Below, piece after piece: positions 46,576-57,713 of a stretch of 64,000 nt of DNA. The first letter of the stretch is position 1, and the number at the start of each line of letters is the position of its first letter. Source of the stretch: Bdellovibrio sp. SKB1291214. Lineage in GTDB: Bacteria; Bdellovibrionota; Bdellovibrionia; Bdellovibrionales; Bdellovibrionaceae. Under the pieces are notes generated by a model, which had not been told where the DNA came from, did no database searches, and saw only the letters and a list, made by a program, of their open reading frames with translations. Position numbers and translations under genes: made by a program. The DNA is taken from positions 1,612,001 through 1,676,000 of the forward strand of contig NZ_CP106855.1 of NCBI RefSeq assembly GCF_002209355.2, written 5' to 3'.

Positions 46576-47676
46576 ATGACCCGAGAATTTCGCAAAGATA
46601 TCCGGGGCAGAGGCGCCAGCAGTAATATTCCGAATCGTTTCGATTCTCTCCATTTCGAAGCCGAGCCACAGGATTTTGACAATTATCTTGAAGAGGAAAA
46701 ACCTCGTTTGCAGACGCAAGTTCTGAAGGATTCGTCGCGCGCGGTTTTGACTAAGAACGATAGTCCAGACATCGGATTCACGTATTCTGTAAATCCTTAT
46801 CGTGGATGTGAGCATGGGTGTATCTATTGCTATGCTCGTCCAACGCACGAGTATTTAGGGATGTCTGCAGGATTAGATTTCGAATCAAAGATCATGGTGA
46901 AGGAAAACGCACCTGAATTGCTTGAAGAAGCTTTGATGAAAAAGTCCTGGGAACCACAAGTTATTGTCATGAGTGGTGTCACCGACTGTTATCAGCCGTT
47001 AGAGCGCGAATACAAACTGACTCGTGGTTGCTTGGAAGTTTTAAATAAATTTAAAAACCCCGGAGCAATCATTACGAAGAATCATCTGGTCACTCGAGAT
47101 ATCGATATTCTGCAAGAAATGGCTCAGTACAAAGGGATTGTTGTCACAATTTCGATCACATCACTAGATACAGAGTTGATTGCATCCTTGGAACCCCGCA
47201 CATCCAGACCTGCGGCGCGTTTGCGAGCGATTGAGGAATTGGCAAAAGCGGGAATTCCTGTTGGAGTGAATGTGGCTCCAATGATTCTTGGTCTTACGGA
47301 TCACGAGATGCCTGCGATACTAAAGGCTGCAGCAGATGCTGGAGCGACATCTGCTGGATACACGATGCTTCGACTTCCGCATGCCGTGGCTCCATTATTC
47401 GAAGAGTGGTTGGACGTTCATCGCCCTTTGAGAAAAAACAAAGTGATCGAGGCTGTTAAGGATGTTCGCGATGGAAAGATGTACAAATCTGACTTTGGAA
47501 ATCGAATGACGGGCACAGGTCCTAGAGCAGAACAACTGGCGCAAGTTTTTGAAGTGTACTCGCGAAAGTATAAACTAAATGCGAAGAACTGGAGTTTATC
47601 TGCGGCCCATTTTAAAAGACCGCCGACAGCGGCAGAGATCGCGGCACAAGCACAATTGAGTTTTGATTTAGAGTAA
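46576..47676 (+). CDS. PA0069/SplB-like radical SAM protein
   Basis: 366 residues from ATG 46576; an upstream ATG at 46534 is inside the terminator. Residues 1-25 (REFRKDIRGRGASSNIPNRF) match the N-terminal stretch of the PA0069/Rv2578c family. The SAM cluster is C78-x3-C82-x2-C85 in YRGCEHGCIYCYARP. The TIM-barrel continues with VIVMSGVTDCYQPLERE, TKNHLVTRD and GVNVAPMILGLTDHEM. The reaction is unknown; relatives include spore photoproduct lyase, so DNA repair is a guess. Its stop is 17 bases before the helicase gene, suggesting one transcript. Confidence 0.88.
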   Translation: MTREFRKDIRGRGASSNIPNRFDSLHFEAEPQDFDNYLEEEKPRLQTQVLKDSSRAVLTKNDSPDIGFTYSVNPYRGCEHGCIYCYARPTHEYLGMSAGLDFESKIMVKENAPELLEEALMKKSWEPQVIVMSGVTDCYQPLEREYKLTRGCLEVLNKFKNPGAIITKNHLVTRDIDILQEMAQYKGIVVTISITSLDTELIASLEPRTSRPAARLRAIEELAKAGIPVGVNVAPMILGLTDHEMPAILKAAADAGATSAGYTMLRLPHAVAPLFEEWLDVHRPLRKNKVIEAVKDVRDGKMYKSDFGNRMTGTGPRAEQLAQVFEVYSRKYKLNAKNWSLSAAHFKRPPTAAEIAAQAQLSFDLE

Positions 47677-47693
47677 TATTAACAAGAGAGATC

Positions 47694-50111
47694 ATGGCTA
47701 AAAGGAACTTACGCAAAATTCAAATAGATCTGCGCCAGTTCGCTTTGCCCTGTCCTCGCGTGGGTAGTATCGAAGCGCACTCGGGTTATGGCCAAACTCC
47801 AAAGCTTGGGCAAGAGATTCACCAAAACATTCAACGCAAAAGAATTCGTGAAGTTCCGGGTTATGTGGCCGAGAAAAAACTTTCAATTGAATTTGAGCGC
47901 GAACAGTATCTGTTCGTCATTTCAGGGCGTGCCGACGGTGTCATCGAGGGATCTCAGTTTCAAGTTGAAGAAATTAAATCCGCGTTTGATGTTGAGGGGC
48001 TAGAACATAAGCTGACTGTTGATGATAACCATCCCTATGTGTGGCAGCTTCGTACCTACGGATACATTCTCTATAAACAAACGGGTGAAGTTCCAGATTT
48101 AAAGATGCTTTTGGTTTCCTCGCGAAACTTTAAGCAAAGTGAGATTTATTTTGAGCTGGATATTGAAGCGTATGAGGCCTGGTTAGCGCTCCGTTTGGCG
48201 GAGTTAGTTGAAGAAACCAAGATTCGTGAAAAGCTTTTCAAAAAAAGAGTGGTATCTTCCGAGGAGCTACAGTTTCCGTTTAGCTCTCCGCGCCCAGGCC
48301 AAGTTGAGCTGATAGAAAACATTCAAGTCGGATTCGTCGAAGAAAAATCAATGGTCATTCAGGCACCCACGGGGCTTGGTAAAACCATTGGGGTATTATA
48401 TCCATCCTTGAAGGATTCTTTGGCGCGTGGACAAAAGGTAATCTATGTAACGCCTAAGAACTCTCAGCACCAAGTTGCTGAGGAGGCGGTCGAAAGACTG
48501 CAGGATCAAGGTGCTTCAATCAGACCCCTGACAATCACGGCAAAAAGTAAAATGTGCTTTAAGGCTGAACCTTTATGCAATCCCCAGTATTGTGAGTTTG
48601 CGAAGGACTATTATAAGAAGATCGCGGAAAATGATCTGATAAACAAAGTGTCGAAACTTCGTTCATTAAGTCAAAAAAAGTTGCAAGAGCTAGGTGAACA
48701 ATACCAAGTGTGCCCGTTTGAACTTTCCCTTGAGGCGATTGAGCGGGCAGACGTGGTGATAGCTGACTATAACTATGTTTTCTCTACCAGAAGCCTTTTA
48801 GGACGTTTAGAGCTGCCCCTAATGGAGCCGAACCAAAAAGCAAACTTGGTGATCGATGAAGCCCATAATTTGCCCGCGAGGGCGCAAGATTATTTCTCGC
48901 CAGCGATTTCAACACGCGATTTACAAAACATCATTCCTTCTCTGGGAAAAATAAACATCCGTTTTCAAAAACGTGCACAGTTGTTATGTGAAGAAGCAAT
49001 CGAGCTTATTGAGTCCTATCATGGCGAATCCAGAACCATTCAAATCAATTTTGAACCTGTGTTTGAGCTTGAGTCGCGCATGCGAGAATTCTTGTCAGAA
49101 TACTTAGAAGCAGATATCGAAATTCAAACCCAAGATGGCGTTTTAAAGCTGGTCAATCTATGGAGCGACTTTGCACAAGCTTCCGAGTTGCAAGGACCTG
49201 AGTTCTTTCAAACATACCAAAAAAACAGACTCTATGGAGAGATCAATCAGACTCTGAAACTTACGTGCTGTGACGCTTCGGTTCACCTAAATGAAGTTTA
49301 TAAGTCATTCAAAAATGTGGTGGCATTCTCTGCGACACTAAAGCCATTTAGTTATTCGATGAAACTTTTGGGCTTTTATGAGTTGACGACAAAGTGCCTT
49401 GAGTTCGTTTCACCGTTTCCGAAAGAGCATAGAAAAATTCTTTTAATTCCACAGATTTCAACGAAATATAAGGATCGTCCTGCGAATGCTCCTAAAATTG
49501 CTCAGGCAATGGAGAGGATCATGGCGGTAAAACCAGGCAATTACATTGCTTTATTCCCGAGCTTTGAATTCATGAAAGATGTTGAAGGATATCTGAGAGA
49601 CAGTACCTATCAGCGTTTAGTGCAACAACGTGAAATGAAAGCGGATCGGGTGGATGACTTTCTTTCATTTATGAAGAGTGCAGACAAGCCAACACTGCTG
49701 TTGGCTGTTCAAGGTGGAATTTTCTCGGAGGGAGTGGACTTTCCGGGTGATATGTTAATTGGTGCCTTTGTTATTGGACCGGCGCTACCGAATTTTGATT
49801 TCGAGCGCGAGCAAATTCGTGAGTATTATGAGCGCTCCTATGATAAAGCCCAGGCATTTAATTATACTTACGTTTACCCCGCTATGGCGAAAACAATTCA
49901 GTCTGCGGGGCGAGTCATTCGTTCTGAGAATGACAAGGGCATTATCGTCTTGATGGACTCCCGATTTTTAGAGACAACATACGCCGAAACTATGCCCCAG
50001 GGTTGGTTTCAGCAGGGTGCGCAGGAGTTGGTTTCAGGGAAAATTATTTCTGACGTGACTGACTTTTGGAATAGTATCCAGGCACCCATGGAAAGCGAAG
50101 TCGAAGCGTGA
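47694..50111 (+). CDS. PD-(D/E)XK nuclease fused to XPD/DinG-type iron-sulfur helicase
   Basis: 805 residues. Residues about 30-160 match a Cas4/AddB-type PD-(D/E)XK nuclease: His43 in GQEIHQ, Asp81 in GRADGV, Glu93-x-Lys95 in VEEIKSA, and Gln118 and Tyr122 in VWQLRTYGYIL. Residues about 200-790 form a superfamily 2 helicase: Walker A APTGLGKT (Lys230), four cysteines for an iron-sulfur cluster (Cys288, 295, 300, 340), DEAH at 388-391, and QSAGRVIRSENDKG (motif VI). It probably unwinds 5' to 3' like XPD/DinG, with a nuclease active on the same substrate. The next gene overlaps by 4 bases (GTGA), so the two proteins are made together. Confidence 0.9.
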   Translation: MAKRNLRKIQIDLRQFALPCPRVGSIEAHSGYGQTPKLGQEIHQNIQRKRIREVPGYVAEKKLSIEFEREQYLFVISGRADGVIEGSQFQVEEIKSAFDVEGLEHKLTVDDNHPYVWQLRTYGYILYKQTGEVPDLKMLLVSSRNFKQSEIYFELDIEAYEAWLALRLAELVEETKIREKLFKKRVVSSEELQFPFSSPRPGQVELIENIQVGFVEEKSMVIQAPTGLGKTIGVLYPSLKDSLARGQKVIYVTPKNSQHQVAEEAVERLQDQGASIRPLTITAKSKMCFKAEPLCNPQYCEFAKDYYKKIAENDLINKVSKLRSLSQKKLQELGEQYQVCPFELSLEAIERADVVIADYNYVFSTRSLLGRLELPLMEPNQKANLVIDEAHNLPARAQDYFSPAISTRDLQNIIPSLGKINIRFQKRAQLLCEEAIELIESYHGESRTIQINFEPVFELESRMREFLSEYLEADIEIQTQDGVLKLVNLWSDFAQASELQGPEFFQTYQKNRLYGEINQTLKLTCCDASVHLNEVYKSFKNVVAFSATLKPFSYSMKLLGFYELTTKCLEFVSPFPKEHRKILLIPQISTKYKDRPANAPKIAQAMERIMAVKPGNYIALFPSFEFMKDVEGYLRDSTYQRLVQQREMKADRVDDFLSFMKSADKPTLLLAVQGGIFSEGVDFPGDMLIGAFVIGPALPNFDFEREQIREYYERSYDKAQAFNYTYVYPAMAKTIQSAGRVIRSENDKGIIVLMDSRFLETTYAETMPQGWFQQGAQELVSGKIISDVTDFWNSIQAPMESEVEA

Positions 50112-51655
50112 AGCTAACAGAAATGCCATTATTCTTTTTTGATCTACAGACCACAGGGGCGAAGCCTGAAAGTGGTGCTGCTATTCTGGAGATGGCATGG
50201 ACTTCATCCACAGGATGCACAGAAGCAAGTTTAATTAAACTTCCGAATGAAGAAAAAATTCCATATCGCATACAAATGATCACGGGAATTTTTAATGACG
50301 ACATGATTGCTGCAAATGCAGCAGACGCTGTTTTCCGATCTCTCGAGGAAAAATTCGCGAATCACCGCTGTGTGATTCATTTTGCGCAATTTGAAAAACC
50401 CTTTCTGGCACACCAATACTCGCAGTGGCAAAAAGAGTTTCCTTTTGAAATCCTTTGCACGCATGAAATCGCAAAGAGACTTTTCCCGAATCTACCCACG
50501 CGTGGTATTAAGGGTCTGGCCGGATACTTCGGTTATCCTTCGCAGGATTTAAAACGGGCTGCTCAACAGACAGCGGCGACAAAGGCCATCTGGGAAGGCT
50601 TAATAGCCGAACTATTTAAACAGGGAATAGAGACCTGGGATCAGCTTCAAGAGTGGCTGCAAGTTACACCTAAAGCTAAAAAAACGAAATACGAATACCC
50701 CCTTGAAAAAGAAAAACGCCTTAAATTGCCAGATCAACCAGGTGTTTATCGTATGATTAGTAAATGGGATGAGATCCTCTATGTGGGTAAGGCGACATCG
50801 TTAAAAGACCGTGTGAACAGTTATTTCCGTGGGCAAAAGAATCGTGACTCACGCAAGCTAGAGATGCTGACTCAGGTTTATGATCTTCGAGTTACGGTGT
50901 GTGGCAGTCCTTTAGAGGCGGCATTGCTTGAAACAGACGAGATAAAAAAGTGGGACCCAAGATATAACATTTCTTTAAAAGCCGGACACCGCAGCGTCGT
51001 TTTTTTCAATCACGAGATGACCGATATCGATTACGAACAGAGTGCAGAGTTTCCTTTAGGACCGTTCTCAAGCAGTTTGGTATTCGATTCCATTCGCAAT
51101 TTACGTGAATGTTTGGTGGCGGGTAAATTTCATGATAATATTTTTTACGAGCCCATCGACGCCTCTTTAGTCGAAGAAGGTTTTAAAGTTTTCTGTGAAA
51201 GAAATGAACTTGTCGCTGAGACCTTTAAATCTGTTCGAAATATGCTGGCATTGGGATTATGGTGGAATCGCCAATACGACCTTTTGGATGAGGAAGCGTC
51301 CGAGGGCGGAGACGAAGTGGAAGAAGCCAATGATGACGTCACCGCTACAGATATTGCTGACAAAATCGAACGACACATCATGCGTGCGGGCCGTACATAC
51401 TTACGGGCTAAAGAACTCACCAAAATTTTAAATGCTGATATTTCTTATTTGCCTGCAGACGCAGACATTGAAAACCGTTACCAGCTTAAAGTTCGTGGTG
51501 GAAATATCAACAACGAAGCTGATGAGAAACGAATTCCAAAGGTATCACTTTGGAAGGGGCTTACAATTGATACTTACGATCGCATGAGTGTTCTGTTGAT
51601 GGAACTTGGAAAAGTGCGCACACAAGACGGGCACGTAGAAATTCAATTCCGTTAG
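50108..51655 (+). CDS. Degenerate DnaQ-like exonuclease domain fused to GIY-YIG nuclease
   Basis: 515 residues starting at GTG 50108. Residues 1-170 have a DEDD exonuclease fold, but motif I is FFDLQTTG (Gln14 where Glu is catalytic), motif II is HFAQFEKPFL (Glu96 for Asp) and motif III is KRAAQQTAAT (Lys149 for His, Gln154 for Asp). Only Asp12 of the catalytic set survives. Residues 205-290 are an intact GIY-YIG nuclease of UvrC/Cho type: GVY at 212-214, YVG at 225-227, Arg235, Glu275, Asn287. The last 200 residues contain an acidic stretch but no known motif. Fusions of DnaQ-like and UvrC-like domains occur in other bacteria and are linked to DNA repair. Confidence 0.85.
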   Translation: MKLTEMPLFFFDLQTTGAKPESGAAILEMAWTSSTGCTEASLIKLPNEEKIPYRIQMITGIFNDDMIAANAADAVFRSLEEKFANHRCVIHFAQFEKPFLAHQYSQWQKEFPFEILCTHEIAKRLFPNLPTRGIKGLAGYFGYPSQDLKRAAQQTAATKAIWEGLIAELFKQGIETWDQLQEWLQVTPKAKKTKYEYPLEKEKRLKLPDQPGVYRMISKWDEILYVGKATSLKDRVNSYFRGQKNRDSRKLEMLTQVYDLRVTVCGSPLEAALLETDEIKKWDPRYNISLKAGHRSVVFFNHEMTDIDYEQSAEFPLGPFSSSLVFDSIRNLRECLVAGKFHDNIFYEPIDASLVEEGFKVFCERNELVAETFKSVRNMLALGLWWNRQYDLLDEEASEGGDEVEEANDDVTATDIADKIERHIMRAGRTYLRAKELTKILNADISYLPADADIENRYQLKVRGGNINNEADEKRIPKVSLWKGLTIDTYDRMSVLLMELGKVRTQDGHVEIQFR

Positions 51656-53391: not shown

Positions 53392-54186
53392 ATGAAATTG
53401 CACCTTAGTCCTATAATCCATCTAAATGCACTGGTGTCACTGGTGCTGTTGATCATGACATCTGTGTCTATGGCTGCCACACCGTCTTTGGAGATAGAAG
53501 GAAACCCAGAAGAGCAGGGTCTGGTCGAGACTTACTATGATCCCCAATCGCTTGTGGAACTTCATGTACGTCAGGACAATCTTGCGGATTATAAAACCCG
53601 ACGGGAAACTCACGGCGTGTACTTTGGGATCAATTATGAAAACTATATCCCTGTTAGTTTTGTTTCAGCCAACGACGGAAAGACATACAATGAGCTTTTC
53701 AATGGAGATTCGATCTCTATCTTGAGTTTGCTTATAGATTATAAATTTAATTTCGTTCTGGGATCCATCGCATTGGGTGGATCGGCGGGGATGGGTAGCA
53801 TTTCTGATAATCGCAGCGGTGATACGCGTACTTTGGAAGTTACAAAATACATGGGGACCCTAAAATACACGATAGATAATTTAATGAAGGAACCCTATGT
53901 GGCTCCTTATGTTGGATTCTCGATGTATCAAATGGAACTTAACGATAAATCAACAACAAGCTCTATCAGTGAATCAACCCCGACAAGCTATGCTTACACA
54001 TTGGGACTATTGCTTCAGTTAGACTGGCTTGATAATGATACGGCAAAATCTGCGACCTTCAATTATGGCTTAGAAAATACGTTTCTGGATGTGTTCATGA
54101 GTCAGTATTTATCATCTGGCGGTGATGCCGATGCCAACATGGAGACCGATCCAATTTGGGGTGTCGGTCTTCGCATGGAATTTTAA
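53392..54186 (+). CDS. Probable outer-membrane beta-barrel protein
   Basis: 264 residues from ATG 53392 (weak ribosome site); an upstream GTG at 53356 lacks support. Signal peptide ends near MTSVSMA. The rest has alternating hydrophobic/polar strands with short turns (GVYFGINYENYIPVSF, SLLIDYKFNFVLGSIALGGSAG, APYVGFSMYQMEL) and a terminal Phe (GVGLRMEF), features of outer-membrane barrels. About eight to ten strands are suggested. The family is not recognised. Divergent from the NagZ-like gene and convergent with mfd (4-base overlap). Confidence 0.7.
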   Translation: MKLHLSPIIHLNALVSLVLLIMTSVSMAATPSLEIEGNPEEQGLVETYYDPQSLVELHVRQDNLADYKTRRETHGVYFGINYENYIPVSFVSANDGKTYNELFNGDSISILSLLIDYKFNFVLGSIALGGSAGMGSISDNRSGDTRTLEVTKYMGTLKYTIDNLMKEPYVAPYVGFSMYQMELNDKSTTSSISESTPTSYAYTLGLLLQLDWLDNDTAKSATFNYGLENTFLDVFMSQYLSSGGDADANMETDPIWGVGLRMEF

Positions 54187-57100
54187 ATCATATTTAAAAG
54201 CTTTTCCATTTCCTGATGGACAGCGGACCACGAAATAGTTGCCATCTTGATGTTAAGGCGATTATCTGGCGTGATGGAATACTTTTTGGATTCCTTCATC
54301 GCCAGCTGAATTACACGTGCGGGCTCAAGCTTGGTTTTTTCTGTGAACACCAATGAGATTGAAGTAACACCTGCACTGATATCGCGAACACCTAATTCTT
54401 TACATTGACGTCGAATTAACATCAAACCCATCAAATTGACTGTTTGGTCAGGAATTGGACCGAACTGATCGCGCAACTCCTCCTCGATCCGATCAAGATC
54501 ATCGCTCGAAGTAATTTCTGCGAGTGCTTTATAGTAACCCAAACGAATGCGGATATCTTTAATGTAAGCATCAGGAATAAGTGCTGGGATCTTAAGATTG
54601 ATTTCTGGATCCAGATCCATATCCTCGACTTTTTCGCCCTTAGCTTCCGCCAAGGCCTCGTTTAATAGATCCATGTACAATTCATAGCCGACAGAATTGA
54701 CGTGGCCTGACTGCTCCTCGCCCAAAATATTTCCTGAACCCCGAAGCTCTAAGTCATATTGAGCAATCTTAATACCACTACCTAGAGCTGTATTTTCTTG
54801 AATGATCTTTAAGCGCTCTTGCTGTTCTTTATCGAGCTTGCGATTCTTTGGCATCATCAAATAGCAGTAAGCGCGCGTTTTTGAGCGACCTACGCGACCC
54901 CGCAGCTGATACAGCTGTGATAAACCAAACATATGAGCGGAATCAATGAACATTGTATTTGCCCGTGGAACGTCCATTCCGGACTCCACGATCGCAGTAC
55001 AAATTAATACATCAATTTCGTGATGAAAAAACGACAACATCGCTTTTTCAAGTTCGTGCTCTTCCATTTGCCCGTGTGCAACTTTAATACGTGCCTCGGG
55101 AACAATGCTGCGGATTTCATCTGCAAGTCCATAGATAGATTCGATACGATTGTGAATGAAGTAAACCTGACCACCGCGAGAAATTTCAGCGGTGATGGCT
55201 TTGCGAATAGTTTCTTGATCAAATTTGGTCACGAAAGTACGTGTGGGCAGTCTATCGACAGGCGCCGTGTTGATTAAACTTAAATCGCGAATACCAACCA
55301 AAGCCATATTCAGCGTTCTTGGTATTGGTGTTGCCGACAAGGTCAGGGTGTCGACGCTGTTTTTAAGCTTTTTCATCTTTTCTTTGTGAGTGACGCCGAA
55401 CTTTTGCTCTTCATCGATAATCAAAAGACCTAGATCCTTGAATCCTATCGAACTTCCTAAAAGTTTATGTGTGCCGACGATGATATCGACTTTCCCATCT
55501 TTAATATCTTGAACCGTTTTCTTGCTTTCCGACGGAGTGACAAAACGATTCAACACTCGAATGTCAACGGGCCAACCCTCAAAACGCTTTTTGAATGTTT
55601 CAAAGTGCTGGAAGGTTAAGACCGTGGTTGGTGCAAGAATCGCAACCTGGCGACGAGCTTGAACAGCAAAAAATGCTGCGCGCATCGCGACCTCAGTTTT
55701 TCCAAAACCGACATCTCCACAAACCAGTCGATCCATTGGCTTCGTTGATTTTAAATCAGATAAGATATCGCCAATAGCCCGCAACTGATCATTGGTTTCC
55801 TCGTAGGGGAAGCCATTTTCGAAAAGTTGAATTTCGTTTTCACGGAACTCAAATGGAGGTCGGTACATCTCCGCACGTTTTGCATACAAAGCCAAAAGAT
55901 CTGCAGCGATATCGCGAACATGAGATTTAACTTTAGCTTTCGTTTTTTCCCAAGCGGTTCCACCGAGTTTATCAAGGACCGTGGTTGCACCAGCACCAGA
56001 AAATTTTTGGAGCTGGCCAATGCGGTAGACGGGCAGATAAAGTTTGTCCTTGTCTTTAAATCCGACCTGGATGAACTCGGATTCAACCCCGCCGATGGCC
56101 ATTATTTTTAATCCGTCGTAGACACCAATGCCGTGTTTAACGTGAACGACGAGGTCGCCGGGCTTCAAATCTCCAAAGGCTAAACGCTTGGCCTGTTTTT
56201 GAAAATCTTGCGCTGCTGAAGACTCCCGGCTGCGCATTTTTTTGCCAAAGAAATCTTCATCACGCAGAAATATCACGCGCTCTTCATCAAAGCGCAAGCT
56301 GTCTGGCAGATAGCGACTGACTATGTGAATGAGGTGTTTATCGCTTTCTTGTTCTTGGAGCCATGAATCCCACTTGTATTCATCCTGGCCACAGCGAACT
56401 GCTTTTAGTTCGAGTTTTTCAAAGATCAAAGACAGACGATCAATATGTGATTGATTCTTGGTGCTGACGAAAATTCTGTAGCCGTCGTCTCTCCACTTAT
56501 GAAGCTTGTTGGTTGCAGCTTGTAACCACAACTCAGACCCTACGGGATTTGTGCTGGATAAATTTGAAAAGTCTTGAGTCAATGAAGTGCGATATTCAAC
56601 ATGCGAGTCCGCAGACCCCTCATCATTTGCATCATCTAAGTATTCTAATGTTGAAAAATAAATTTGGCGGCTGTTCTGAGGATAAGCAATCTGCTCAAAG
56701 CCTTGGAACAGTAAATCCATCTCGGGGCGAATCACGTGGGACTCGCTAGTATTGTAATCAGCTTTTAGTTCCGCCATGAAGTCATCGGCGTTACGTGAGA
56801 TTTCAACAGGATCTAAGAACCAAACATTCACGGCACCTGGAAAGTGATCGATTGGGCTTGCAGGCTCGCCATAAAAATAGGGTAGTAAAAATTCAATACC
56901 CGGAAACGAATTTTTAAGAACCAAAGAGCGAAGCATTTCGTCAGCCTCGGCTTTGTCGACGGGGCGACCATCGATGTGCGCACGAACTCTTTGTAAAAGT
57001 CTTTCGTGAGTTTCATCACGGAACAAAACTTCACGAGCAGGAGTTAAAAGAAAGGATTTGATTTCATCGGCGCTGCGCTGATCATCCACATTAAAGTGCC

Positions 57101-57713
57101 GAAGAGTTTCGATTTGATCACCAAACAAATCCAGGCGAACTGGCATGTCTTCAGTGGGTGGGAAGATATCAACGATTCCTCCCCTCAAAGCATATTGTCC
57201 CTTGTCCTCAACCATCGGCGCAGAAACGTATCCAAGGGAATTCAAATATTCGGCAATGTCTTCTGGCAACTCCTCGCCAGCTGACAAAGTTCGCGAGGTT
57301 TCTTTTAGAATTTTGACTGGAATTGTTTTCTGAATCAGCGCGTCAGGTGAGGCAATGAATATTTCGCCAGCCTTTGCACCCTGTGCTTTTGCAAGAAAAC
57401 GCACGCGATCAGCAGCTGATCTCGTGTTTGGATAAAGACCGGAATAAGCAGAAACATCAAACGCCGGCAAAATCGTGCTCTGACGAAGTGGGTCAAAGAA
57501 CATCAAAAGCTGCTGAAGTTTCAATGCTTCTTGCTGACTGCCAACTACAACTACGTGCGGCAAGCCGTTGATTTTTTTAGAGTATGTTTGTGACAAAAAG
57601 AAAGCAAGCGCGAGCGGAGAGGAAGCTCCACTCACTTGAATTTTACCGCGGGTTGTTTCGAAGGCGCGATCTAGTATCGATTCGAGCCTTGTATGAGTCA
57701 TTTCGGCTTTCAT
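54183..57713 (-). CDS. mfd: Transcription-repair coupling factor Mfd
   Basis: 1176 residues. N-terminal UvrB-like module (about 1-350), then a CarD-like RNA polymerase interaction domain (GDLVVHVKHGIGVYDGLK). The RecG-like translocase has Walker A GDVGFGKTEVAMRAAF, DEEQKFGV, TLSATPIPRTLNMAL, and QLRGRVGRSKTRAYCYL. The C-terminal D7 ends near the stop. It removes RNA polymerase stalled at lesions and recruits UvrA. It is transcribed alone, on the minus strand, divergent from the nuo genes. Confidence 0.97.
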   Translation of the reverse strand: MKAEMTHTRLESILDRAFETTRGKIQVSGASSPLALAFFLSQTYSKKINGLPHVVVVGSQQEALKLQQLLMFFDPLRQSTILPAFDVSAYSGLYPNTRSAADRVRFLAKAQGAKAGEIFIASPDALIQKTIPVKILKETSRTLSAGEELPEDIAEYLNSLGYVSAPMVEDKGQYALRGGIVDIFPPTEDMPVRLDLFGDQIETLRHFNVDDQRSADEIKSFLLTPAREVLFRDETHERLLQRVRAHIDGRPVDKAEADEMLRSLVLKNSFPGIEFLLPYFYGEPASPIDHFPGAVNVWFLDPVEISRNADDFMAELKADYNTSESHVIRPEMDLLFQGFEQIAYPQNSRQIYFSTLEYLDDANDEGSADSHVEYRTSLTQDFSNLSSTNPVGSELWLQAATNKLHKWRDDGYRIFVSTKNQSHIDRLSLIFEKLELKAVRCGQDEYKWDSWLQEQESDKHLIHIVSRYLPDSLRFDEERVIFLRDEDFFGKKMRSRESSAAQDFQKQAKRLAFGDLKPGDLVVHVKHGIGVYDGLKIMAIGGVESEFIQVGFKDKDKLYLPVYRIGQLQKFSGAGATTVLDKLGGTAWEKTKAKVKSHVRDIAADLLALYAKRAEMYRPPFEFRENEIQLFENGFPYEETNDQLRAIGDILSDLKSTKPMDRLVCGDVGFGKTEVAMRAAFFAVQARRQVAILAPTTVLTFQHFETFKKRFEGWPVDIRVLNRFVTPSESKKTVQDIKDGKVDIIVGTHKLLGSSIGFKDLGLLIIDEEQKFGVTHKEKMKKLKNSVDTLTLSATPIPRTLNMALVGIRDLSLINTAPVDRLPTRTFVTKFDQETIRKAITAEISRGGQVYFIHNRIESIYGLADEIRSIVPEARIKVAHGQMEEHELEKAMLSFFHHEIDVLICTAIVESGMDVPRANTMFIDSAHMFGLSQLYQLRGRVGRSKTRAYCYLMMPKNRKLDKEQQERLKIIQENTALGSGIKIAQYDLELRGSGNILGEEQSGHVNSVGYELYMDLLNEALAEAKGEKVEDMDLDPEINLKIPALIPDAYIKDIRIRLGYYKALAEITSSDDLDRIEEELRDQFGPIPDQTVNLMGLMLIRRQCKELGVRDISAGVTSISLVFTEKTKLEPARVIQLAMKESKKYSITPDNRLNIKMATISWSAVHQEMEKLLNMI

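What the first reader, a model, noticed from the sequence alone, without database searches (positions are those of the whole stretch)
47694..51655. Overlapping gene pair: nuclease-helicase fusion plus pseudo-exonuclease/GIY-YIG fusion
The first protein joins a Cas4/AddB-like PD-(D/E)XK nuclease (Asp81, Glu93, Lys95 intact) to an XPD/DinG-type iron-sulfur helicase. The second joins a DnaQ-like domain that has lost four of five catalytic residues to an intact UvrC/Cho-type GIY-YIG nuclease. The genes share GTGA and are probably made in equal amounts. A radical SAM gene is 17 bases upstream. The pair brings two nucleases and a helicase together with a substrate-binding relic. A novel excision, recombination or prey-DNA processing complex is possible, though each part has known relatives.
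Basis: partly seen in the sequence, partly recalled or inferred. Interest (0 to 1): 0.72.

Follow-up and report, generated by a model that had tools for sequence, protein, structure and literature searches.

The report
Paired repair helicase-nuclease and nuclease partner
Two overlapping bacterial genes make a DNA-unwinding and cutting enzyme and a second DNA-cutting protein whose front half is a switched-off enzyme; the two travel together across distant bacteria, and on plasmids they sit among DNA-damage repair genes, so they probably form a DNA repair machine that has not been described before.

Summary
P1 (47694-50111) is an N-terminal PD-(D/E)XK nuclease fused to an Fe-S XPD/DinG helicase; this architecture is already named "EndoDinG", with B. 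bacteriovorus as type (PMC11981726). P2 (50108-51655) is a DEDDh-fold domain with four of five catalytic residues changed, plus an intact UvrC/Cho-type GIY-YIG nuclease. New here: the pair is a conserved two-gene module. P2 homologues occur in Bdellovibrionota, Melainabacteria (Cyanobacteriota), Legionella, Fibrobacterota and scattered MAGs. P1 lies beside 44 of 57 of them, in three gene orders. P2-bearing genomes nearly always carry P1: 21/21 in Bdellovibrionota, 5/5 in Legionellaceae, 22/23 in Obscuribacterales. The changed residues are fixed rather than decaying: D12, Q14 and E96 are invariant in 53 P2 proteins. Three Legionella plasmids, two typed conjugative, carry the pair beside dinB, umuDC, SRAP, Ku, LigD or UdgX genes. 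Best reading: a damage-repair helicase-nuclease with a dedicated GIY-YIG partner, the pseudo-exonuclease serving as docking or DNA-end-binding module. Physical interaction is untested: a linked AlphaFold model (pTM 0.67) did not place the partners. Prey-DNA processing and a role for the radical SAM gene are not supported. New variant of a known kind; interest 0.62.

The parts
47694..50111 (+). P1, EndoDinG-type protein: N-terminal PD-(D/E)XK nuclease (about residues 1-190; H43, E60, D81, E93, K95) fused to an Fe-S XPD/DinG SF2 helicase (about 195-790)
50108..51655 (+). P2, pseudo-DEDDh plus GIY-YIG protein, GTG start, overlapping P1 by GTGA
50108..50677 (+). pseudo-DEDDh domain of P2 (about residues 1-190): D12 kept, Q14 and E96 replace catalytic E and D, K149 replaces H, Q154 (H in most relatives) replaces D
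50708..50986 (+). GIY-YIG nuclease domain of P2 (about residues 201-293), UvrC/Cho type, catalytic residues intact
51335..51652 (+). C-terminal domain of P2 (about residues 410-515), conserved in the family, no detectable similarity to the UvrC C-terminal part
46576..47676 (+). PA0069-family radical SAM gene upstream; adjacent only in part of the genus, so not a core part of the module

Best explanation
The two genes encode a dedicated two-component DNA-damage repair machine. P1 is an EndoDinG: an Fe-S helicase, 5'-3' by family, that opens damaged or stalled DNA and carries its own PD-(D/E)XK nuclease. P2 brings a second nuclease of the kind that makes the 3' incision in excision repair (UvrC N-terminal half, Cho). 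P2's DEDDh-fold domain no longer has the residues of a two-metal exonuclease; it most likely serves as a docking module for P1 and/or a clamp on a single-strand 3' end. Together they would cut on either side of an opened lesion, for example to unhook a crosslink or excise a blocked stretch, and repair or translesion polymerases would fill the gap. Shown: sequence architecture, intact or altered active-site residues, co-inheritance, linkage in several gene orders, and the repair-gene context on Legionella plasmids. Inferred: physical interaction, the division of labour between the two nucleases, and the substrate.
For: (1) Linkage: P1 lies beside P2 in 44 of 57 P2 loci from several phyla. P1-P2 order occurs in 37, with genes overlapping in 28 of these; P2-P1 in 6 (L099, L104, L105, L106, L118, L127); opposite strands in one, L100. 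(2) Co-occurrence: all 21 P2 genomes of 192 Bdellovibrionota have P1; 5 of 5 in 93 Legionellaceae; 22 of 23 in 53 Obscuribacterales. Fisher p is 5e-17, 2e-8 and 7e-10, uncorrected for relatedness. Of 13 genomes where P2 is not beside P1, 6 have a clear P1 elsewhere and one a divergent P1-like match. (3) P1 and P2 distances correlate at r = 0.82 over 54 pairs, 0 of 2000 permutations as high. (4) D12, Q14 and E96 are invariant in 53 P2 proteins, and mean entropy of the old active site is 0.38 against 2.07 bits for the domain. (5) Three Legionella plasmids carry the pair with dinB, umuC/umuD, SRAP peptidase, Ku, LigD or UdgX. A dinB fragment also adjoins P2 in an Oligoflexia MAG, L099. (6) The closest folds to the pseudo-exonuclease include the exonuclease domain that is covalently fused to a DinG helicase in S. 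aureus; that enzyme acts in crosslink repair (PMC12345164).
Against: A natural in-frame P1-TAG-P2 locus (L094) folded as one chain gave pTM 0.67 with a disordered junction, about what two independently placed bodies would give (my estimate). P1 occurs without P2 in about half of the Bdellovibrionota that have P1 (20 of 41), so P1 does not need P2. A few divergent P2 genomes show no P1 (G192, G201, G202, G204), though several are draft MAGs. The repair-gene context comes mainly from one genus; no third neighbour is conserved elsewhere. No LexA-type box stands before the pair: the scan of a motif recalled from memory found 18 sites against 22 expected. Nearly all family data are computational.
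Confidence: 0.55

Rival explanations
1. P1 and P2 are a conserved operon acting in the same general pathway but not as a complex: P1 resolves stalled forks or R-loops, and P2 is a Cho-like accessory nuclease that still works with UvrAB.
For: P2 residues 200-395 align with the UvrC N-terminal half, Cho-type enzymes take part in nucleotide excision repair (PMC1564403), and P1 is often alone.
Against: P2 almost never occurs without P1 in three separately sampled groups, although UvrC is nearly universal. The P2 C-terminal domain shows no similarity to the UvrC C-terminal part, and the C4 cysteine region is not conserved.
Confidence: 0.25
2. An anti-phage or anti-plasmid defence pair: a helicase-nuclease plus a nuclease effector, in the style of Hna, Gabija or type IV DinG.
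For: Helicase plus nuclease is a common defence layout, P1 matches PADLOC typeIV_DinG models, and the distribution in Legionellaceae is patchy.
Against: No conserved defence neighbours and no CRISPR-like array in the window. Hna has its nuclease at the C-terminus and lacks Fe-S (PMC13381803), unlike P1. The plasmid neighbours are repair genes.
Confidence: 0.1
3. The pseudo-DEDDh domain keeps a nuclease or metal-dependent activity with an unusual site (D12, E96 and mostly H at position 154).
For: D12 and E96 are invariant and position 154 is H in 47 of 53.
Against: The window protein and its closest relatives have Q at 154, E14 is replaced by Q in all, and the catalytic H149 is replaced by K, N or R in most. 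Together this departs from every canonical two-metal DEDDh site.
Confidence: 0.1

Closest known systems
EndoDinG subgroup of DinG-like helicases (type: B. bacteriovorus HD100; PMC11981726)
   Same: P1 has the same architecture, nuclease residues and four-cysteine Fe-S domain, and comes from a Bdellovibrio-like genome
   Different: The EndoDinG section of the 2025 review mentions no partner gene; the conserved partner P2 is what this report adds
ExoDinG (S. aureus and B. subtilis DinG; PMC12345164, PMC12525004)
   Same: A DEDDh-fold domain works with a DinG helicase; in Foldseek the S. aureus protein is the top match to the P2 model
   Different: There the exonuclease is active and fused to the helicase; here the DEDDh fold is altered and carried on a separate protein with a GIY-YIG nuclease
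Cho+Exo and Cho-like+Exo proteins (Mycobacterium type, NCBIfam PRK07883; PMC1564403)
   Same: P2 has the same N-terminal DEDDh fold plus GIY-YIG order
   Different: P2 scores far below the family cut-offs, has four of five catalytic residues changed, lacks the conserved C4 region, and is tied to P1
Archaeal XPB-Bax1 helicase-nuclease (PMC7293015)
   Same: A helicase working with a dedicated nuclease in excision repair
   Different: Different helicase family and different nucleases; functional analogy only
Hna anti-phage helicase-nuclease (PMC13381803)
   Same: SF2 DinG-like helicase plus PD-(D/E)XK nuclease
   Different: Nuclease at the C-terminus, no Fe-S cluster, single-gene system

Membership tests
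EndoDinG (P1) | N-terminal PD-(D/E)XK domain with conserved H, E, D, E, K | tested here: met
   H43, E60, D81, K95 in 43 of 43; E93 in 42 of 43
EndoDinG (P1) | Four-cysteine Fe-S domain and SF2 helicase motifs | tested here: met
   C288, C295, C300, C340, K230, D388, E389, H391 invariant; Pfam matches
EndoDinG (P1) | Endonuclease activity | not testable with these tools
   Reported as unpublished for the HD100 protein (PMC11981726)
Cho+Exo / PRK07883 (P2) | DEDDh fold followed by UvrC/Cho-type GIY-YIG | tested here: met
Cho+Exo / PRK07883 (P2) | Score above the curated NCBIfam cut-off | tested here: not met
   Best 163.7 bits against a cut-off of 495
Cho+Exo / PRK07883 (P2) | Catalytic DEDDh residues intact | tested here: not met
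   Four of five changed; Q14 and E96 invariant in 53
Cho+Exo / PRK07883 (P2) | C4 cysteine region after GIY-YIG | tested here: not met
   No column after the GIY-YIG domain has Cys in more than 20 of 53 rows
UvrC (P2) | UvrC C-terminal half (UvrB-binding, endonuclease and HhH domains) | tested here: not met
   P2 410-515 does not align with the UvrC-type set, hhalign E 0.36; P2 ends at 515 aa
Hna defence protein (P1) | C-terminal PD-(D/E)XK nuclease and no Fe-S cluster | tested here: not met
   P1 nuclease is N-terminal and the four cysteines are present; Hna description from PMC13381803
CasDinG, type IV CRISPR (P1) | CRISPR array or cas genes nearby | tested here: not met
   No CRISPR-like array in the 64 kb window and no conserved third neighbour
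Repair complex of P1 with P2 | Physical interaction | tested here: inconclusive
   Linked model pTM 0.67, junction pLDDT about 40

The most novel reading that the evidence does not exclude
P1 and P2 form a bacterial dual-incision excision machine independent of UvrAB: an XPD-class helicase that opens the lesion, with two different nucleases cutting on its two sides and an inactive exonuclease fold as scaffold. This would be a convergent counterpart of the eukaryotic XPD plus two nucleases, spread between phyla and on conjugative plasmids.
Probability: 0.2. Interest if true: 0.85.

Novelty: new variant of a known kind. Interest (0 to 1): 0.62.

Why it matters
EndoDinG proteins were described in 2025 with no known partner or pathway. 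A partner that is co-inherited across phyla, and that sits with translesion polymerases and end-joining genes on plasmids, gives them a testable role. It also offers a clear case of a nuclease fold fixed in a changed, probably non-catalytic state and kept under strong selection. If the two act together, it would be an excision or unhooking route in bacteria outside UvrABC.

Tried and rejected
Radical SAM gene as a third part: adjacent only in some genus members and in one other Bdellovibrio MAG, L063. Mfd linkage: not found in the flanks of relatives. SOS control: LexA-type sites no more frequent than chance. Promoter scan not informative. Prey-specific role: the pair occurs in Legionella and Obscuribacterales. 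Defence island: no support. Complex model: MAFFT misaligned a first mixed alignment, corrected in A6; the model did not place the partners with confidence. The P2 C-terminal domain was not searched by fold on its own, so its fold is untested. Whether 9kqh has a paper is unknown; none was found in the library. No earlier report of the P1-P2 pair was found in ten literature searches of an open-access library, which does not exclude one elsewhere. Co-evolution analysis was not attempted, as about 54 pairs are too few.

Full report
Observation. The window holds two overlapping genes at the stated coordinates. P1 (47694-50111, 805 aa) and P2 (50108-51655, 515 aa, GTG start) share GTGA. The genome is a single 3.68 Mb contig, and the window also holds an ATP synthase operon upstream and Mfd downstream on the other strand. 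P1 carries an SF2 Fe-S helicase and matches PDB 9kqh_A over its full length, nuclease part included (1e-84). P2 carries a DEDDh-type fold and a GIY-YIG domain. In P2, D12 is kept but E14, D96, H149 and D154 are changed to Q, E, K and Q; the GIY-YIG residues are intact.

What P1 is. Cheng 2025 (PMC11981726) defines EndoDinG as DinG-like helicases with an N-terminal PD-(D/E)XK domain and names B. bacteriovorus HD100 as the representative, with endonuclease activity reported as unpublished. P1 meets the sequence features: H43, E60, D81 and K95 and the four cysteines are invariant in 43 proteins, and E93 is kept in 42. P1 alone is therefore not new.

What P2 is. The N-terminal DEDDh plus GIY-YIG layout is known as Cho+Exo (PMC1564403) and NCBIfam PRK07883, but P2 scores 163.7 bits against a cut-off of 495. 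Residues 200-395 align with the UvrC N-terminal half (hhalign E 9e-45, driven mainly by the GIY-YIG domain); 410-515 do not align with UvrC. The AlphaFold model of P2 is confident (pLDDT 92.6, pTM 0.87). Its first 190 residues match PolC exonuclease (Z 20) and S. aureus DinG exonuclease (Z 18). Homologues of a different subfamily in the same phylum (L024-L032, about 430-450 aa) keep all five DEDDh residues, so the changed state marks the P1-linked family.

The changed site is fixed. Across 53 full-length P2 proteins of several phyla, D12, Q14 and E96 are invariant, position 154 is H in 47, and the mean entropy of eight positions around the old active site is 0.38 bits against 2.07 for the domain. 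This is what a retained binding or docking site would show, and not what decay would show.

The pair is a module. In 192 Bdellovibrionota genomes, P2 is in 21 and P1 in 41; every P2 genome has P1. A scan of 84,980 species genomes gave 57 P2 family loci in Bdellovibrionota, Melainabacteria and other Cyanobacteriota, Legionella, Fibrobacterota, and single MAGs labelled Fermentibacterota, Acidobacteria, Myxococcota and Geobacteraceae. P1 is beside P2 in 44 of the 57. The order is P1-P2 in 37, P2-P1 in 6, and on opposite strands in one (start codons chosen automatically). Some of these loci are the same genomes as in the phylum survey. Of 13 genomes where P2 is apart from P1, six have a clear P1 elsewhere, one has a divergent P1-like match, and the rest have weak or no match. 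In Legionellaceae the same 5 of 93 genomes hold both genes. In Obscuribacterales 22 of 23 P2 genomes hold P1. P1 and P2 distance matrices correlate at 0.82. In a P1 tree the paired state covers the deep branches and the solo cases are few and clustered, though several deep branches are long and weakly placed.

Context. No third gene is conserved with the pair outside clade-level synteny. On three Legionella plasmids, two of them typed conjugative, the pair lies next to genes annotated as DNA polymerase IV, a Y-family polymerase, UmuD, SOS response-associated peptidase, Ku, DNA ligase D or UdgX. Two draft Legionella contigs, L102 and L103, share dinB, with umuC and umuD also present in L102. 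In an Oligoflexia MAG, L099, a dinB fragment stands just upstream of P2, and P1 there is an internally deleted remnant. The context argues for damage repair or tolerance, not for defence or predation.

Mechanism. S. aureus ExoDinG, a DinG with an active DEDDh domain in cis, was proposed to repair crosslinks by unwinding 5'-3' while its exonuclease removes the damaged strand (PMC12345164). Cho makes the 3' incision in excision repair (PMC1564403). By analogy, P1 would open the lesion and cut with its PD-(D/E)XK domain, while P2, held to P1 or to a 3' end by its pseudo-DEDDh domain, would cut with the GIY-YIG domain. Interaction, polarity and substrate are inference. A linked model of P1 with the first part of P2, read through the single TAG between in-frame genes in L094, gave pTM 0.67 and a disordered junction; it supports neither a complex nor its absence.

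Verdict. A real, conserved, apparently undescribed partnership between a known helicase-nuclease class and an altered Cho+Exo-like protein. New variant of a known kind, moderately high interest, function unproven.

Noticed in passing
L158, L159, L160 (Legionella plasmids): Plasmid-borne repair islands combine the pair with dinB, umuDC, SRAP peptidase and, variably, Ku, LigD and UdgX.
   Followed up: partly
L099:2858-5781: Oligoflexia MAG with a dinB N-terminal fragment, an intact P2 and an internally deleted P1 remnant: a decaying copy of the island.
   Followed up: partly
L024-L032: A separate DEDDh plus GIY-YIG family of about 430-450 aa in the phylum, with all catalytic residues intact and no P1 homologue in the short flanks held.
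   Followed up: partly
G298 (Legionellaceae genome): Besides the intact pair, two further partial P1 copies at other places.
   Followed up: no
L117:7962-8891: A P2 homologue without P1 stands next to a gene that looks like an SbcD-type phosphoesterase, judged by eye only.
   Followed up: no
window 54183-57713: Mfd lies 2.5 kb downstream on the opposite strand; not found in the flanks of related loci.
   Followed up: yes
window 46576-47676: PA0069-family radical SAM protein of unknown function directly upstream; adjacent only in part of the genus.
   Followed up: partly
Listeria and Enterococcus records: P1-like proteins at about 30% identity in Bacillota, including prophage-labelled records; the one region read (L161) shows no gene annotated as GIY-YIG nearby.
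   Followed up: partly
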